From NCBI GenBank assembly GCA_001770775.1, contig MESA01000001.1, positions 22,641 through 86,640 of the forward strand: a stretch of DNA of 64,000 bases, read 5' to 3'. The notes beneath the pieces are model-generated. The model made no database searches and was not told where the DNA came from. It was given only the letters and a program-made list of their open reading frames with translations. The translations under genes were made by a program, and so were the position numbers. Shown here piece after piece: positions 44,572 to 52,441 of this stretch. The DNA comes from Burkholderiales bacterium RIFCSPHIGHO2_12_FULL_63_20. Lineage in GTDB: Bacteria > Pseudomonadota > Gammaproteobacteria > Burkholderiales > Burkholderiaceae_C. Numbering within the stretch: the stretch's first letter is position 1; each line of letters starts with the position of its first letter.

Positions 44572-46008
44572 ATGTCCACCCCTCACACCTCCGTCGCCCG
44601 CCAACTGAAGCAAACCCTGCACCTGTGGGTGCTCTCCGTGCGCGACATGCTGGCCTCGGCTGGCCCCGTGCTGCTGCTGGCCATCGGGCTGCTGGGCGCC
44701 GCCTACTGGTGGCTCGACCCCCAGCCCCCGCGCACCGTCACGCTCGCCACCGGCCCCGCGGGCAGTGCCTACGCCGACTTCGGGCAGCGCTACGCCCAGG
44801 CCCTCGCGCGTGACGGCATCCGCGTCCAACTGCTCGCCACCGACGGCCCCGTCGCCAACCTGCAGGCCCTGCGCGAAGGCCGTGCCGACGTGGCCTTCGT
44901 GCGCGGCGGCAGCGACGACATGAGCCGCGACGCCAGCGCCGGCATCATGTCACTGGGCGCGCTGTTCTACGAGCCGCTGTGGCTCTTCTACCGCCCCGAC
45001 GTGTTCCAGACGCCCACCAAGGGAGCCACCCCCGACACCCGCCTGACCCCGCTGACCTCGCTGACCCAACTGCGCGGCCTGCGCGTCAATATCGACCAGG
45101 CGGGCAGTGGCGCACCCGTTCTGATCCAGCGCCTGCTGGAGGCCAACGACCTCACCCTGGGTGACATCACCGCCAGCCACCTGCCCCCGCCCGATGCCGC
45201 CCACGCCCTGCTAACCGGCCAGCTCGACGTCATCGTGCTGGTGACCGCACCCGAATCCCCCGTGGTGCAAGGCCTGCTGCAGCAACCCGGCATTGCCCTG
45301 GCCGACCTGCCGCAAGCCGACGCCCTGGCCCGACGCTTCCCCTTCCTGCAAACCGTGTCGCTGCCACGCGGCATGGTCGATCTGGCCCGCGACCTGCCCC
45401 CCGACGACATCGGCCTGCTGGCCGCCACCACGGCCCTGCTCACCCACGAAGACACCCACCCCGCCTTGCGCCAACTCTTCGCCCAAGCCGCCCAGCAAAT
45501 CCACGGCGGGTCAGGGTGGTTCAACGGTGCGCGCGACTTCCCCAACACCCGCACCAGCGAGCTGCCCGTCAGCCCCGAAGGCGACCGCGCCATCAACGGC
45601 ACGCCCCCGTTCTGGCAGCGCTACCTGCCGTTCTGGGCCAGCAACCTGCTCGAACGCATGTGGCTGGTCATCGGCGGTTTGATCGTCTTGCTGCTGCCCC
45701 TGTCACGCGTGGTGCCCCCGCTCTACACCTACCGGGTGCGCCAACGCGTGTTCCGCTGGTACGCGCGCCTGCAGGCCGTGGAAGCCCGCATGAACGAGGA
45801 CGACGCCGATCCCAGCGAACTGCTCAAAGAGCTGGACGAACTCGACCGCGTGGCCAGCCAGATCACCGTGCCGCTGGCCCATGCCGATGAGCTGTATGCG
45901 CTGCGCAGCAACATTGAGAAGACGCGCAGGCGGTTGTTGGCGCGGCAGGGGCCCCGTCCACAACGGACGAACAGCGATGACGAACAACAAGCACCTGACA
46001 AGACGTGA
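44572..46008 (+). CDS. TAXI-family solute-binding protein with membrane anchors
   Basis: A 478-residue protein; ATG 44572 (MSTPHTSVARQ) is preferred to the earlier ATG at 44470. A helix at ~27-48 (GPVLLLAIGLLGAAYWW) is followed by a periplasmic TAXI/NMT1-type domain starting TVTLATGPAGSAYADFGQRY, with ADVAFVRGG, GLRVNIDQAGSGAPVLIQRL and LLTGQLDVIVLV. A second helix lies at ~363-383, then a cytoplasmic helical tail rich in Asp/Glu/Arg. Such anchored forms may sense rather than transport. The TGA stop shares bases with a relic of a parD gene, so the natural C-terminus may have been replaced. Confidence 0.78.
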   Translation: MSTPHTSVARQLKQTLHLWVLSVRDMLASAGPVLLLAIGLLGAAYWWLDPQPPRTVTLATGPAGSAYADFGQRYAQALARDGIRVQLLATDGPVANLQALREGRADVAFVRGGSDDMSRDASAGIMSLGALFYEPLWLFYRPDVFQTPTKGATPDTRLTPLTSLTQLRGLRVNIDQAGSGAPVLIQRLLEANDLTLGDITASHLPPPDAAHALLTGQLDVIVLVTAPESPVVQGLLQQPGIALADLPQADALARRFPFLQTVSLPRGMVDLARDLPPDDIGLLAATTALLTHEDTHPALRQLFAQAAQQIHGGSGWFNGARDFPNTRTSELPVSPEGDRAINGTPPFWQRYLPFWASNLLERMWLVIGGLIVLLLPLSRVVPPLYTYRVRQRVFRWYARLQAVEARMNEDDADPSELLKELDELDRVASQITVPLAHADELYALRSNIEKTRRRLLARQGPRPQRTNSDDEQQAPDKT

Positions 46009-46041
46009 GTTGCGCGCGATCGCATGCGGCGAACGTGCCTG
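46007..46041 (+). repeat. Relic of a parD 3' end; left copy of a 35-base direct repeat
   Basis: GAGTTGCGCGC...GAACGTGCCTG matches 33 of 35 bases of 48918-48952, the last codons of the parD gene (ELRAIARGERA). Here the same frame reads ELRAIACGERA within a short open frame from 45977. No similarity extends upstream or downstream. It sits exactly at the TAXI stop codon. Confidence 0.85.
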
Positions 46042-46098
46042 GGGTGAGCATCAAGATATCCTCAGGGCGGTGGACTCCAATCTTTCCTCAGGCCAGGC

Positions 46099-47442
46099 AT
46101 GACCGAACGCGACCCTCTTGAAATCACGTCTACTGCGGCAGGGTTCACCTTCCGCTCGGCCACACCTGCCGAGGCTGCGCGCCCCGCGCGGCTCAACTCC
46201 GGGCATCACACGCTGATCCGGTGGCTGTTGCTGGCCTGCTTGTCCCTGTCGTCTACGGCCGCCATGGCAATGCAGATCTTCGTCAGGACCTTGACAGGCA
46301 AAAACATCACGCTGGAGGTCGAGCCGAGCGATTCGATCGACAACGTCAAGCAGAAGATCCAGGACAAAGAAGGTATCCCGCCCGATCAGCAGCGGTTGAC
46401 CTTTGGGGGCCAGACACTCGAAGATGGGCGCACCCTGCAGGACTACAACATCCAGAAGGAAGCCACCCTGTCTCTGGTGCCCCTGAGCGTGCCACGTGAG
46501 CCCTTGGCCGACAACGTGTCGATCGGCCAGCTGCTGGCCGCGCAGGTCCAGGTCAGCCATCGCTTCACGATGACGCAGCTCAGCCATGTGTGGGAGCGGC
46601 TGGAGGCCACGCCAGATGGCACAGGCAGCTGGGTGGCCGGCAGCGTCGAGCACGGCCGCACGCGTGCGGACGCGCGTGATCCGGGGTTTCACACGCAGGG
46701 CCTGACCTGGGGACTGGACCGCCCTGTGAGCGCCTGGGGCCGGCCGTGGCGCGTGGGTCTGGCCCTGGGCCATGGGCGTGACCGCACAGACACCGATGCG
46801 CAGGGCTCGCAGCTCCGGGCCCGCCAGACCACAGTCATGGCCTATGTGCGCCATGGCGAACCCGGTCGGTGGCAGCTTGACGCACTGGTGGGCCATGGCG
46901 AGATGGCGTTCAAGAGCCAGCGGATGTCCGATGTGATGCTGACAGCACGTCGATCGGGCCAGGTCAACGTGGCAGCCATTCAGCTCAGCCAGACCCTCCA
47001 GTGGGGTGCGCTGGGGTGGCAGCCGCATGTGCAGGCTTCGGCCAGCGAGACCACGCTGGGCGCCAGCACCGAGACCGGCTCGGCGCTGGCGGTGGCGTAT
47101 GAGCGCAGCCGCTTCAGCAGCCGGTCGGCATCGCTGGGCATGAAGCTGTTCACCGATCTGCCCGTGGCCAGCGGCATACTGAGGCCGTCTGTGGACCTGC
47201 AGTACGGTCGCCACCACCAAGGTGATTTGAAGCAGACCGTGCACTACGCCGATGCGACAGATGACCCCATGGATGCGACCCTGGCGATACAGGGCGTGCC
47301 CCGTGAGCAGTGGTCGGCCACCGTGGGCCTGCGCTTCCACGCCGGGTCGGCCGTGATGGCGCAGCTACAGTATGTGCATGTTCATGGTTCTGAACGTTAC
47401 CGATCACAGGCCCTGCGCGCGGGTGTGTCCGTGGCCTTCTGA
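46099..47442 (+). CDS. Ubiquitin-autotransporter fusion protein
   Basis: A 447-residue type V secretion protein. Residues 1-57 are an extended signal peptide, with a hydrophobic core [17 protein letters not shown] and a cleavage site AMA before residue 58. Residues 58-127 are ubiquitin: [19 protein letters not shown] to KEATLSLV, 58 of 70 residues identical to human ubiquitin. Changes are K6R, T12N, T22S, E24D, A28Q, I44T, A46G, K48Q, Q49T, S57Q, S65A and H68S. The C-terminal LRLRGG is missing (PLSVPREP), so it cannot be conjugated in the normal way. Residues ~168-447 form an autotransporter beta-barrel ([28 protein letters not shown]) ending in F. A SET-like gene follows after 9 bases. Confidence 0.9.
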
Positions 47443-47451
47443 GCGCGCGGC

Positions 47452-48450
47452 ATGAGCGCGGTCGAGCTGCTGAGCCAGTATCGAGCCTTGGGGGGCATGG
47501 CCGACAACGTGCAACTGCGCCAGGGGCCCCACGGGTGGGGCCTGTTCGTGGTCGATCCAGACCAACCCGTGCGGGTGTTCACGCCCGCCCACCTGCTGAT
47601 CGCCCCACAGGATCTGCGCCTGACCCGCCAGGGGCACGTGCAGGTGAGGCCGCAGGCCGGGCTGAGCCCCGATCTGGTGTGTTTTCATGAAGCCTACCAG
47701 CGCGAACTGGGCTGGGGCGCAGCTGGTCTGGCGCGCAGCGTGCGCCAGCACCGGCAATGGCAAGCCTTGCCCGAAGCCCTGCAGCCCTTTTTGTCACTGC
47801 TGGGGGGCCGTGCGGCCTCGGCCCAGGCCCCCACACCGGAGCAGGCTTTTGAGACCCATTGCATCAGCCGGCAGATCGGGGTCAATGGCCACTCACGACT
47901 CATGCCCGTGCTGGAGCTCATCAACCATGCCCCTGACGGGGCGCCTTATGTGGTGGCCCAAGGCATCGGCCTGACGGGCCGCTTCACCGACGAAGTCTGG
48001 GCCTGCTACCGGCGTCGGATGGATGGGTTTCACTTCTTCTTCAACTACCACTTTGCCAGCCCATGTCGCGTGGTGCTGTCGTGTGCCGTCACCATCGAGC
48101 TGCCGGGCCTGGGGGTGCTGCGCATTGGCCGGGACGACGGGCAGGTCGAGCACCGGCAGGGGGCCTCATGGCCCCGCGTCACCACCCACCCTGGCGAGAT
48201 CCACCTGTCTTTTGTGGCGCTGGCCAACCAGGATGCGCCCACCCAGCCACGCGAGGTGTTTGTGCGCCTGATGGCCGAGCATGGCTTGCCCACAGCCCGT
48301 GGACATGAACTGTTCGATGGATTGATCGCGCACCATCGGCAGGTGTTGCAGGCCTTTATCCAGGCGTGTGAGGTGGATGCCCGCGCCGATGTCGGGCTGG
48401 CACACCAGCTTCAGCAGGTGGCCCAAGACCAACTGGCACTCACGGCCTGA
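47452..48450 (+). CDS. SET-domain-like protein (putative lysine methyltransferase)
   Basis: A 332-residue protein without signal peptide, starting 9 bases after the ubiquitin gene stop. It shows the SET order of the SETD/Rubisco-methyltransferase type. GPHGWGLF (25-32) stands for the SET-N glycine motif and VFTPAHLLI follows. RLMPVLELINHAPDG (149-163) gives the NH motif that binds S-adenosylmethionine. EVWACYRRRMDGFHFFFNYH (181-200) gives the catalytic tyrosine and the YGF-like end, here NYHF. The middle ~110 residues would be the variable insert. No zinc-binding cysteines follow. Such enzymes methylate protein lysines. Assignment rests on motifs only. Confidence 0.65.
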   Translation: MSAVELLSQYRALGGMADNVQLRQGPHGWGLFVVDPDQPVRVFTPAHLLIAPQDLRLTRQGHVQVRPQAGLSPDLVCFHEAYQRELGWGAAGLARSVRQHRQWQALPEALQPFLSLLGGRAASAQAPTPEQAFETHCISRQIGVNGHSRLMPVLELINHAPDGAPYVVAQGIGLTGRFTDEVWACYRRRMDGFHFFFNYHFASPCRVVLSCAVTIELPGLGVLRIGRDDGQVEHRQGASWPRVTTHPGEIHLSFVALANQDAPTQPREVFVRLMAEHGLPTARGHELFDGLIAHHRQVLQAFIQACEVDARADVGLAHQLQQVAQDQLALTA

Positions 48451-48716
48451 TCTTGATCCAACAGAAACTTTCGGACGTCGGGCCCCGGGCCCGCGATGGC
48501 TCTGTGATCGAAAGACCTGTTCCTGGCCCGGTGCATCAGCGCTTGTTGGACCTGCGGCGCGTTCCTGCGTGACGTGCAGGCCAAGCCAAAAATATTCTTG
48601 ATCGGGGAAGAACGTGACCTTGCAGAACTTGCTGGGGATGAGCCTTGACGCCATCGCGCCATCGCCTTGACAACAGTTATGACACCCGACAACATCCCCT
48701 CATAAGCAGAAACACC

Positions 48717-48953
48717 ATGAGCTTTGCCCTGCCTGAAAACATGCGGCACGACATCGACGCGCGTGTGGCGTCCGGGCACTATGGCAACACCAGCGAATAC
48801 ATCCGCGACCTGATCCGCAAGGATCAAGAGCAGCAAGCGATGCAGCGCCTGCGTGGCCTGATCGAAGAAGGGCTGGCATCCGGCCTCGCCGAGGCCCGCA
48901 CGGACGATGACCTCAATGAGTTGCGCGCCATCGCACGCGGCGAACGTGCCTGA
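48717..48953 (+). CDS. parD: ParD-type antitoxin
   Basis: A 78-residue protein with an N-terminal ribbon-helix-helix (MSFALPENMRHDIDARVASG, then GNTSEYIRDLIRKDQ), which binds its own promoter. The flexible C-terminal half ends ELRAIARGERA and would wrap the toxin. ATG 48717 is preferred over the frame opening at 48645. The stop is directly followed by the parE ATG. Its last 35 bases are repeated at 46007. Confidence 0.88.
   Translation: MSFALPENMRHDIDARVASGHYGNTSEYIRDLIRKDQEQQAMQRLRGLIEEGLASGLAEARTDDDLNELRAIARGERA
48918..48952 (+). repeat. Right copy of the 35-base direct repeat (parD 3' end)
   Basis: Matches 46007-46041 at 33 of 35 bases. The two copies are 2,911 bases apart and bracket the ubiquitin-autotransporter and SET-like genes plus most of parD. 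Confidence 0.85.
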
Positions 48954-49310
48954 ATGAAACCTGCACGGCTGCGCCCCCTAGCCAGGCGCGACCGCCTGGA
49001 TGAGATCAGGCACGACCGAAACGTGGCGGGCACCCGCGTTGCGGAAACATTGTTGGTGGCCACTGACCACGCCCTGGACCTGCTGGAGTGCCAACCCAGC
49101 ATGGGCTCACCAACCCTGGGCAAGCGGATCGGCGTGTCAACCCTGCGCTCATGGCGCGTGACGGGTTTCCCACTGATGTGGTTCTACATCGAACGCGATG
49201 ACCACCTCGACATCCTTCGCCTGCTGGGTGAGCGACAAGATGTCCTGGCGATTCTGGACAACGAAGGGCCACTGTCCTCGCACGAACCTGCAGCCCCGTA
49301 TCGCACATGA
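48954..49310 (+). CDS. parE: ParE/RelE-family toxin
   Basis: A 118-residue protein starting at the base after the parD stop. The fold pattern fits ParE: LARRDRLDEIRHDRN, a long helix (AETLLVATDHALDLLECQPS), GSPTLGKRIGVSTLRSWRV, PLMWFYIERDDHLDILRLLG and ERQDVLAIL. ParE toxins poison DNA gyrase and are neutralised by ParD. The C-terminal ~18 residues (EGPLSSHEPAAPYRT) are an extension. The stop overlaps the next gene by 4 bases (ATGA). Confidence 0.8.
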   Translation: MKPARLRPLARRDRLDEIRHDRNVAGTRVAETLLVATDHALDLLECQPSMGSPTLGKRIGVSTLRSWRVTGFPLMWFYIERDDHLDILRLLGERQDVLAILDNEGPLSSHEPAAPYRT

Positions 49311-51139: not shown

Positions 51140-52441
51140 TCAGCGTCTGTTGGACCTGCGGCGCCCTCGGGCCTGCTTCGCAGCTTCCACGGCCATGGCC
51201 ATGGCCAAGTCATCTGGCCTGGACGCGATCTCAGATGCCAGCCCAAACGACCATCGCACCGATTCGACCACCTCATCGTGCACACCCGGCAGCGGCGCCA
51301 GCGCCTCGCGCATGAGTGGCTCCCATTGGCTCGCTACGGTTTGCGCGGCCGATGACAACCAGGCTGCCGCCACCTCCACATCGAGCCCGAAGTGAGCCGC
51401 CACGCCTAGAAAGCGGCCGAGCCCTGCCTCCCCGTTGCCATCCAGCCCTGTTGCCATGGAAAGACTGGGCCGATCACCATTGCGCACGGTGAACATTGGC
51501 GTGATGTCGAAGGCAGGTGACAAGCGCCACCCATGTCCATCATGAAGCAAGCCATGGTTGCGGGGGTGATCGTCCATGTTGCCAACCAATGCATTGAAGA
51601 CCATGCGCTTCCAAAGCTCTTGCGTCTCCAACGCCCCCCAACGCCTCATCGCATCGGCCAAGTGCAGATACGAGCGCCGCGGGTCACCGCGAACGGCCGA
51701 TGGCTCCAGTTGCAGCACGGCATGCGCGCTAGCAAAGAGCCGGCGTTGTGGGCAGGCGGGATCGCCAGTCCGGTCAAAGCGCTCGATCATGAACACCTGG
51801 TGGGCACCGTGCGTGCGCAACGCGATCTCCGGCACTGTGAGCCCGACCCTGCGCGCCAGGGACATGGCCACAAACTCACGTGCTGGCATACACGGCAAAT
51901 CGCCGCGGTCTTGCATCTTCACCAGCCACAACTTGCCCTCGTGCTCAAACGTGGCCTTGGGGCGCTCCCCCCCCGCACTCGTCCCAGCATCACCGTTGAC
52001 ACGACGGATGGCGCGCGAAGAAGGTGAACCCTCTTCCAGTCGGTCCAACTCGCTGGCAAGCGCCGATACCGGCTTCGGACGCCATGCGATTTTGTGCTCA
52101 ATCTGCTCGCACACCTCCATGGCGCCCACCGTATCGGGTGGCCCCACCTCCAGCAGCTCGATGGCAGACAGGTCTCTGCCGGCGTTGGCGCACAGACGGT
52201 CTTGCCCATACCCGGCGGGCTTGGCGTCCTGGATCACGAACGGCAGGCCTGCGATCTTGGGAATGGGGACGTTGCCCTTCTTCAAGCGCAGCTGCACCGG
52301 ATCCAGCGCCACCGCCTGCTGCTGGGACAAGTACTCAGGCAGGTAACGGAACCCTGCTGGATGCTCGTGCACCAGCTCACCGGCCTGAACGGGCACGCTG
52401 CGGCCAGGGAGCCAAATCCAGACCGGAACAGCGTGGCCCAT
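51140..52441 (-). CDS. hipA: HipA-like serine/threonine kinase toxin
   Basis: A 433-residue kinase toxin. The N-terminal subdomain (1-110) includes LPEYLSQQQAVALDP. The kinase part has KATFEHEGKLWLVKM, the catalytic loop NMDDHPRNHGLLHDG and the metal-binding LSPAFDITPMF. HipA phosphorylates glutamyl-tRNA synthetase or related targets and causes dormancy. It lies downstream of hipB with 3 bases between, as in hipBA operons, but here the antitoxin gene precedes the toxin. All catalytic residues appear intact. Confidence 0.87.
   Translation of the reverse strand: MGHAVPVWIWLPGRSVPVQAGELVHEHPAGFRYLPEYLSQQQAVALDPVQLRLKKGNVPIPKIAGLPFVIQDAKPAGYGQDRLCANAGRDLSAIELLEVGPPDTVGAMEVCEQIEHKIAWRPKPVSALASELDRLEEGSPSSRAIRRVNGDAGTSAGGERPKATFEHEGKLWLVKMQDRGDLPCMPAREFVAMSLARRVGLTVPEIALRTHGAHQVFMIERFDRTGDPACPQRRLFASAHAVLQLEPSAVRGDPRRSYLHLADAMRRWGALETQELWKRMVFNALVGNMDDHPRNHGLLHDGHGWRLSPAFDITPMFTVRNGDRPSLSMATGLDGNGEAGLGRFLGVAAHFGLDVEVAAAWLSSAAQTVASQWEPLMREALAPLPGVHDEVVESVRWSFGLASEIASRPDDLAMAMAVEAAKQARGRRRSNRR

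What the first reader, a model, noticed from the sequence alone, without database searches (positions are those of the whole stretch)
46099..47442. Near-eukaryotic ubiquitin displayed on a bacterial autotransporter
Residues 58-127 match human ubiquitin at 58 of 70 positions and are directly fused to an autotransporter barrel (seen). Bacterial ubiquitin this close to the eukaryotic sequence is rare; the known case, Bacteroides fragilis Ubb, is a small secreted protein without a barrel (established). A ubiquitin head exposed on the cell surface by type V secretion suggests mimicry or blocking of a eukaryotic host's or predator's ubiquitin system (inference).
Basis: partly seen in the sequence, partly recalled or inferred. 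Interest (0 to 1): 0.96.

Follow-up and report, generated by a model that had tools for sequence, protein, structure and literature searches.

The report
Ubiquitin displayed on bacterial surface
A bacterium carries a gene that appears to hang a near-copy of the eukaryotic protein ubiquitin on the outside of its cell, beside a second gene that keeps company with such ubiquitins in some relatives; what the pair does is not yet known.

Summary
Confirmed: window 46099-47442 encodes signal peptide + ubiquitin (residues 58-127, 58 of 70 identical to human) + helix + 12-strand autotransporter barrel. It is no assembly chimera: codon composition is uniform, a congener has the same protein, and a close relative shows the empty site.
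New here: (1) It is one of a scattered class. A named-genome scan gave at least 420 places encoding relatives; of the best 80, 62 have a signal peptide ending just before ubiquitin Met1, with very different tails: barrel, IPTL/PEP-CTERM, T9SS tail, S-layer, dockerin. 59 of 66 such copies lack Gly76. (2) The next gene (47452-48450, unknown family) sits beside a signal-peptide ubiquitin in 11 loci, in three gene orders; a search with it alone recovered three of these. Partner-linked precursors share a cytosolic leader before the signal peptide. Best reading: surface-displayed, non-conjugable ubiquitin whose precursor is handled by a cytosolic partner; target unknown.

The parts
46099..46269 (+). 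N-terminal extension and signal peptide (residues 1-57), cleavage predicted at AMA|MQ, directly before ubiquitin Met1
   Evidence: sequence; hydrophobic stretch and AxA rule of my own; low confidence in the model
46111..46176 (+). leader motif (residues 5-26, [22 protein letters not shown]) resembling that of partner-linked relatives, lying before the signal peptide's hydrophobic core
   Evidence: the window copy was not recovered in leave-one-out
46270..46479 (+). ubiquitin domain (residues 58-127); against human K6R T12N T22S E24D A28Q I44T A46G K48Q Q49T S57Q S65A H68S
46516..46608 (+). helix 140-170 leading into the barrel
46624..47439 (+). 12-stranded autotransporter barrel
   Evidence: PF03797; model and Foldseek
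47452..48450 (+). partner gene, 332 aa, no signal peptide by inspection, no Pfam, NCBIfam or PDB match; possibly SET-like
45940..48654 (.). segment absent from relative G022 (L106): both genes are a recent gain or loss
46006..46041 (+). 36-base near-copy of the end of the parD-like gene (other copy 48917-48952, 94% identical), near the upstream edge of that segment

Best explanation
The gene is a minimal type Va display device whose only passenger is ubiquitin. Steps: (1) the precursor is made with a cytosolic leader and a signal peptide; (2) the cytosolic partner from the neighbouring gene acts on the leader-ubiquitin part before export, either as a modifying enzyme (a SET-type lysine methyltransferase is my guess) or as an export chaperone that keeps fast-folding ubiquitin open; (3) Sec export, with cleavage at AMA|M so that ubiquitin begins at Met1; (4) the barrel inserts in the outer membrane and ubiquitin is presented outside, still attached; (5) lacking Gly75-Gly76 it cannot be activated or conjugated and works as a non-covalent ligand or decoy for a ubiquitin-recognising protein of another organism, most likely a protist grazer or other eukaryote. 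Architecture, empty site and genetic linkage of the partner are shown by computation; export, surface exposure, the action of the partner and the target are inferred.
For: Domains and fold. Signal peptide ending just before Met1 in 62 of the best 80 loci, with five kinds of anchoring or sorting tail, so what is kept is export plus a free ubiquitin N-terminus. Gly76 absent in 59 of 66 signal-peptide copies and in 19 of 19 barrel-type copies (18 with PF03797, and L090). Ubiquitin has at most 0.61 of the dN of the rest in 12 of 16 comparable pairs, three of them with saturated synonymous sites (pairs overlap). Partner: adjacent in 8 of 80 loci examined (75 named, 4 unnamed regions, window), found in 7 of 20 genomes behind signal-peptide loci, one copy each, the adjacent one, and in 1 of 399 order genomes, the own one. 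All 6 full-length partners in a family of 187 genomes stand beside a signal-peptide ubiquitin, three of them found by the partner alone. The leader profile gives one strong match per genome in 11 of 11 partner genomes (E 5.5e-7 or better, next best 0.14 or worse) and nothing better than 0.124 in 5 genomes with secreted ubiquitin but no partner (the profile was built from these leaders). The partner follows leader plus ubiquitin, not the barrel: L024 and L028 have it with tails that give no barrel match.
Against: No expression or surface data. Congener G040 has the ubiquitin-autotransporter without partner or clear leader, so the partner is not needed for display in general. The window ubiquitin has lost much of the Ile44 face; in the family/order set Ile44 is kept in only 8 of 14. 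Between the two congeners ubiquitin is hardly more constrained than the rest (dN ratio 0.79), and three other pairs show ratios above 1. The best-80 set was chosen by similarity to the query, so its high ubiquitin conservation is partly built in. Leave-one-out leader profiles missed the window and L044 and found L024 only at E 0.17. Six of the seven named partner loci are in MAGs by title; only Neptunomonas L044 is not. Profile similarity of the partner to SET is not significant (E 0.0075 and 0.0081, probability 5%; 1 of 100 column-shuffled controls did as well) and there is no Pfam SET match.
Confidence: 0.45

Rival explanations
1. Contact-dependent interbacterial antagonism: the displayed ubiquitin is a toxin against related bacteria, as secreted BfUbb is, but tethered.
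For: BfUbb is the tested precedent: secreted, mature protein starting at Met1, no terminal Gly, apparently no immunity gene, strain-variable, at a site that in other strains holds a toxin-antitoxin pair (PMC5705921, results part 1 and discussion read). Here too: patchy (whole protein in 2 of 42 genomes of the genus, own included), empty site in a close relative beside a parDE-like pair, no Gly76, face residues drifting in this copy. Pedobacter L094 has four neighbouring, diverged signal-peptide ubiquitins.
Against: Retention of the eukaryote-like surface in most barrel-type copies is not what an arms race predicts; bovine ubiquitin was inactive against a BfUbb-sensitive strain (PMC5705921). 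No target known here.
Confidence: 0.3
2. Structural cap: ubiquitin is used only as a very stable, protease-resistant N-terminal module that helps folding or protects the exported protein; no partner is recognised.
For: N-terminal in the mature protein and fused to many tails; in the window lineage ubiquitin is hardly more constrained than the barrel.
Against: Low dN/dS and retention of surface residues in the best-80 signal-peptide copies (L8 64/66, I44 59/66, G47 66/66, K27 and K29 66/66) exceed what a fold alone should need, though that set was chosen by similarity; a dedicated partner and leader would be unexplained.
Confidence: 0.17
3. Recent acquisitions from eukaryotes, kept neutrally and decaying, without a function of their own.
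For: The window copy has 12 changes in 70; presence is patchy.
Against: dN/dS 0.28 between window and G040, and 0 to 0.18 in 14 of the 15 other pairs with unsaturated synonymous sites (0.33 in L007/L008); intact frames with fitting signal peptides; T22S and A28Q shared by 49 and 42 of 96 copies suggest long spread among bacteria, though I did not check how common these are in eukaryotes.
Confidence: 0.06

Closest known systems
Bacteroides fragilis BfUbb (PMC3352274, PMC5705921)
   Same: Signal peptide directly before ubiquitin Met1; near-eukaryotic ubiquitin; no terminal diglycine; present in some strains only.
   Different: BfUbb is a free secreted protein of 76 residues ending in Cys; no barrel, leader or partner is described in the parts I read. 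Here ubiquitin is fused to an outer-membrane barrel and linked to a partner gene.
Type Va autotransporters EstA, AaaA, NalP
   Same: C-terminal 12-strand barrel with a helix leading into it.
   Different: The passenger is a single ubiquitin domain (passengers of those proteins recalled: esterase, peptidase, protease).
Lysine methylation of autotransporter passengers: Rickettsia OmpB by PKMT1/2, Acinetobacter AtaA by KmtA (PMC11784438, abstract and passages seen)
   Same: A dedicated enzyme that modifies an exported autotransporter would be the same kind of arrangement, if the partner is a methyltransferase.
   Different: No sequence comparison made; those enzymes are not of SET type (recalled); the partner's activity here is a guess.
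Secreted ubiquitin effectors of plant-parasitic nematodes (mentioned in the discussion of PMC5705921)
   Same: Signal peptide in front of ubiquitin.
   Different: Eukaryotic; no membrane anchor mentioned.

Membership tests
Type Va autotransporter | Sec signal peptide | tested here: met
   hydrophobic stretch and AMA|M site by simple rules; no trained predictor was run
Type Va autotransporter | C-terminal 12-strand barrel, PF03797 above cut-off | tested here: met
   protein ends in Phe
Type Va autotransporter | passenger on the cell surface | not testable with these tools
   needs an experiment
Ubiquitin family | beta-grasp fold, PF00240 above cut-off | tested here: met
Ubiquitin family | C-terminal LRLRGG for conjugation | tested here: not met
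   window reads PLSVPR at 71-76
Ubiquitin family | own conjugation machinery (E2, PF00179) | tested here: inconclusive
   0 of 12 genomes, but none of the 14 control genomes rang either
BfUbb-like secreted ubiquitin | signal peptide directly before Met1 and no diglycine | tested here: met
BfUbb-like secreted ubiquitin | small free secreted protein | tested here: not met
   fused to a barrel
BfUbb-like secreted ubiquitin | antagonism of relatives | not testable with these tools
   needs an experiment
SET lysine methyltransferase (partner gene) | Pfam or PDB sequence match to SET | tested here: not met
   no SET match for the window protein or the 8 aligned members at E up to 10
SET lysine methyltransferase (partner gene) | GxG, NH and Tyr motifs in order | tested here: inconclusive
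   GxG, NH and Tyr columns invariant in 8 members (motif roles recalled); hhalign to 25 bacterial SET frames E 0.0075 and 0.0081 against 0.43 and 0.32 for two unrelated alignments, 1 of 100 shuffles as good
SET lysine methyltransferase (partner gene) | SET fold | not tested
   model made (pLDDT 84.5, pTM 0.78), but no fold comparison of it was accepted

The most novel reading that the evidence does not exclude
A two-gene bacterial system in which a cytosolic enzyme recognises a leader peptide on a ubiquitin precursor, modifies the ubiquitin, and the modified, non-conjugable ubiquitin is then hung on the cell surface by whichever anchor the lineage uses; it belongs to a cross-phylum class of surface ubiquitins aimed at ubiquitin-reading proteins of other organisms.
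Probability: 0.25. Interest if true: 0.95.

Novelty: new variant of a known kind. Interest (0 to 1): 0.85.

Why it matters
Ubiquitin is usually regarded as eukaryotic, and BfUbb is the bacterial exception that the papers I saw discuss. If surface-displayed, non-conjugable ubiquitin is a recurrent bacterial module, in some lineages with its own dedicated partner, it opens a testable question: what, outside the cell, reads it? Records not labelled as MAGs carry related genes (for example Neptunomonas antarctica S3-22 with barrel and partner; Loktanella sp. 5RATIMAR09, Rhodobacter amnigenus and Paradonghicola geojensis without partner seen beside the gene), so grazing, competition and binding assays can be done.

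Tried and rejected
Assembly chimera or eukaryotic contamination of the window: rejected. Phages: no match to the ubiquitin domain. Plasmids: 11 records match, none over 80% of the query; a 74.6% ubiquitin in Ruminococcus albus 7 and weaker ones in two Pseudoalteromonas records; partner: no match. Operon with the upstream NMT1-like gene: rejected, because a close copy of that gene (76% or more) is in 26 of 42 genomes of the genus (any match: 35 of 42) while the ubiquitin gene is in two and is inverted beside it in G040. Promoter and terminator scan of 45800-48700: nothing. Family identity of the partner: no Pfam or NCBIfam hit for the window protein, only weak unrelated ones (E 0.026 or worse) for single members and weak unrelated PDB hits (E 0.092 or worse) for the profile. 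Prior reports: the hits listed showed no paper on a ubiquitin-autotransporter, the partner or a class of anchored ubiquitins; several lists were capped (for example 15 of 878, 20 of 93), and subscription papers and preprints are mostly not held. The Nature Microbiology BfUbb paper (10.1038/s41564-023-01541-5) was seen only as a reference. Of PMC4378268, PMC11354881, PMC6332867 and PMC12853789 I saw passages only; none bears on this gene.

Rows dropped before counts: L042, L047, L048, L068, L088 (judged likely eukaryotic contamination: no signal peptide, and diglycine ends or polyubiquitin); L014 (diverged) from the tallies. The five stay in the denominator of 80. One search used 75 of the 80 named loci, 4 unnamed regions and the window. 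In one search SET frames were picked by an NH motif: 25 of 30 loci.

Full report
The observation. ORF 46099-47442 on the + strand is 447 aa. Residues 58-127 match human ubiquitin at 58 of 70 positions and residues 178-425 match the autotransporter beta-domain, both far above Pfam's cut-offs. The AlphaFold2 model (20-sequence alignment, mean pLDDT 82.6, pTM 0.68) shows a beta-grasp head, a helix at 140-170 and 12 strands of 12 or more residues up to residue 446; residues 1-54 are under pLDDT 50. Foldseek finds EstA, AaaA and NalP for the barrel and ubiquitin at about 0.5 A for the head. The signal peptide ends ...TAAMA, so the predicted mature protein starts with ubiquitin Met1 (simple rules, no trained predictor).

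It is native. GC at third codon positions is 0.77 (signal peptide), 0.81 (ubiquitin), 0.80 (barrel) and 0.86 and 0.79 in the two neighbours. Of 42 genomes of the genus, two carry the whole protein (own and G040, 68% identical over 38-447); a third, G027, matches in the barrel only, at 29%. In relative G022 (L106; aligned pieces on either side 94-97% identical) window 45940-48654 is missing and the NMT1-like gene is followed directly by the parD-like gene; a 36-base near-copy of the end of parD lies near the upstream edge of the extra segment. In G040 the ubiquitin gene lies beside the same NMT1-like gene but inverted. So the segment is accessory.

A class, not a freak. PF00240 is found in 11 of 399 genomes of the family (all over the cut-off) and 7 of 399 of the order (4 over the cut-off, three weak matches inside very large frames); the own genome is in both. 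By my rules 62 of 80 have a hydrophobic signal peptide and an AxA-type site just before ubiquitin Met1. Of the 18 others, five look like eukaryotic contamination, nine are an actinobacterial kind without a visible signal peptide, L085 has a stop 12 residues before ubiquitin close to a contig end, and L041, L077 and L099 fail the rules. Pfam on 57 of the named loci plus L085 gives an autotransporter barrel in 18 of 58; IPTL-CTERM in L024, L032, L053; PEP-CTERM in L070; the T9SS tail in L043, L082, L096; S-layer domains in L059, L080; dockerin in L081, L092, L099; others have Ig-like, GLUG, other or no known domains. Thirteen of the 62 are records of single organisms not labelled as MAGs: L021, L032, L044, L050, L055, L057, L065, L079, L086, L087, L090, L094, L098. 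Taxonomy here is from record titles only.

Constraint. Among barrel-type pairs, the parts after ubiquitin are often only 23-45% identical while ubiquitin is 79-97% identical. In 12 of 16 comparable pairs ubiquitin has at most 0.61 of the dN of the rest, three of them with saturated synonymous sites; the window-G040 pair has 0.79 (dN/dS 0.28 against 0.31) and L007/L008 and two actinobacterial pairs lie above 1. Because the 80 were chosen by ubiquitin similarity, the high identity is partly built in; and saturated synonymous sites would also be seen if ubiquitin had been taken separately from different eukaryotes. Against separate acquisitions: similar signal peptides and leaders in part of the set, and shared substitutions such as T22S (49 of 96 copies) and A28Q (42 of 96), whose frequency in eukaryotes I did not check. 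In the family/order set (14 copies, window and L003 included, L014 dropped) Ile44 is kept in 8 of 14; in the best-80 signal-peptide copies in 59 of 66. Gly76 is kept in 7 of 66 and in none of 19 barrel-type copies. The window copy has 12 changes from human, 6 of them on a set of 11 Ile44-face positions that I listed from memory (hypergeometric P 0.002); G040 keeps that face but for Q49V.

The partner gene. The ORF starting 9 bases after the ubiquitin gene (47452-48450) has no significant Pfam, NCBIfam or PDB relative. Its homologues lie beside signal-peptide ubiquitins in seven other loci: L049 (54% identical, downstream, also 9 bases away), L024 (upstream, same strand, ubiquitin with an IPTL-CTERM tail), and L034, L035, L084, L044, L028 (divergent; L028 has no barrel match). 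L034 and L035 are near relatives, and six of the seven are MAGs by title. It occurs in 1 of 399 order genomes (own), 1 of 15 ubiquitin-bearing genomes of family and order (own; G040 lacks it) and 7 of 20 genomes behind signal-peptide loci, one copy each, the adjacent one. A search of the 187 genomes of G822's family with the partner profile found seven: three already known, three new (G883, G952, G956), and G1019 with two diverged pieces. All three new ones stand divergently beside a signal-peptide-ubiquitin-autotransporter gene, two of them on contigs of 2.0 and 2.6 Mb; G952 and G956 are nearly identical there, so this is two independent confirmations. G1019 shows no ubiquitin in the 8000 of 8912 bases read.

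The leader. Partner-linked ubiquitin precursors, L024 and L028 with other tails included, carry a motif like xLxVVSxxxGIxFTSSAxx before the signal peptide; five barrel-type precursors without a partner beside them (L003, L040, L046, L051, L064) show no clear copy. A 22-column profile gives one strong match per partner genome (11 of 11, E 3.7e-10 to 5.5e-7), in the ubiquitin frame, and nothing better than 0.124 in five comparison genomes. The profile was built from ten of these leaders and the eleventh is nearly identical to one of them. Leave-one-out recovered five of eight at E under 0.05 and L024 at 0.17, missing the window and L044; L138 and L139 were not in the set searched. The window's leader rests on its 50% identity to that of L049. 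L023 has a weak leader (E 0.0095) and no partner in its genome.

Mechanism. The leader precedes the signal peptide and the partner has no visible signal peptide, so the two should meet in the cytosol, before export (inference). The link is to leader plus ubiquitin, not to the barrel. The partner's conserved GxG, NH and Tyr columns, and a model with strands, a helical insert, more strands and a helical C-terminus, remind me of SETD3/LSMT-type methyltransferases (recalled), but profile comparison is inconclusive and no fold search of it could be run. An export chaperone is as plausible. Without Gly76 the displayed domain cannot enter a conjugation cascade (established knowledge), so it should act by binding. 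The target could be a eukaryotic grazer or host, or another bacterium as for BfUbb.

What is known. BfUbb (PMC3352274: abstract, results part 1 of 2 and discussion read; PMC5705921: abstract, results part 1 of 2 and discussion read) shares the signal peptide ending at Met1 and the loss of the diglycine; it inhibited human ubiquitination in vitro and inhibits growth of sensitive B. fragilis strains. Nine paper searches on the topic listed nothing on ubiquitin-autotransporters, on the partner, or on the wider class; the lists were capped and this is no proof of absence. I therefore file it as a new variant of secreted bacterial ubiquitin, with a possible new two-gene system.

Noticed in passing
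window 48645-49310 and 51140-52441: parD/parE-like pair (ParE match just under Pfam's cut-off) and a HipA-like gene downstream of the extra segment; at the B. fragilis ubb site other strains hold a toxin-antitoxin pair (PMC5705921).
   Followed up: partly
L022, L027, L033, L061, L062, L066, L089, L091, L097: Actinobacterial (mostly acidimicrobial) ubiquitin-fusion proteins without visible signal peptide, several ending in ...FTG, two copies near each other in L022, L062 and L091; L062 and L091 are in records titled Bifidobacterium breve.
   Followed up: no
L094 4258-5585: Pedobacter cryoconitis: four neighbouring, diverged signal-peptide ubiquitins ending at or just after Arg72.
   Followed up: no
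L050 5001-5228: Dyella sp. OK004: signal peptide plus ubiquitin 69 of 70 identical to human over residues 1-70, ending exactly in LRLRGG; L065 (Dyella acidiphila) is a relative ending at LRL.
   Followed up: no
L076 5001-5918: Signal-peptide ubiquitin fused to a cyclophilin-like domain (PF18050).
   Followed up: no
L081, L092, L099: Ubiquitin-dockerin proteins in ruminococcal or clostridial records: ubiquitin possibly plugged into cellulosome scaffolds.
   Followed up: no
L035: Contig titled uncultured cyanobacterium carries a locus 94% identical, in the part after ubiquitin, to Methylophilaceae L034: probably misbinned.
   Followed up: no
L014; plasmids NZ_CP077771.1, CP076682.1: Diverged ubiquitin domains inside large repeat or Ig-like proteins (window family; Pseudoalteromonas plasmids).
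   Followed up: no
L141 (G1019) 744-1765: Diverged partner homologue in two pieces with no ubiquitin seen nearby.
   Followed up: partly
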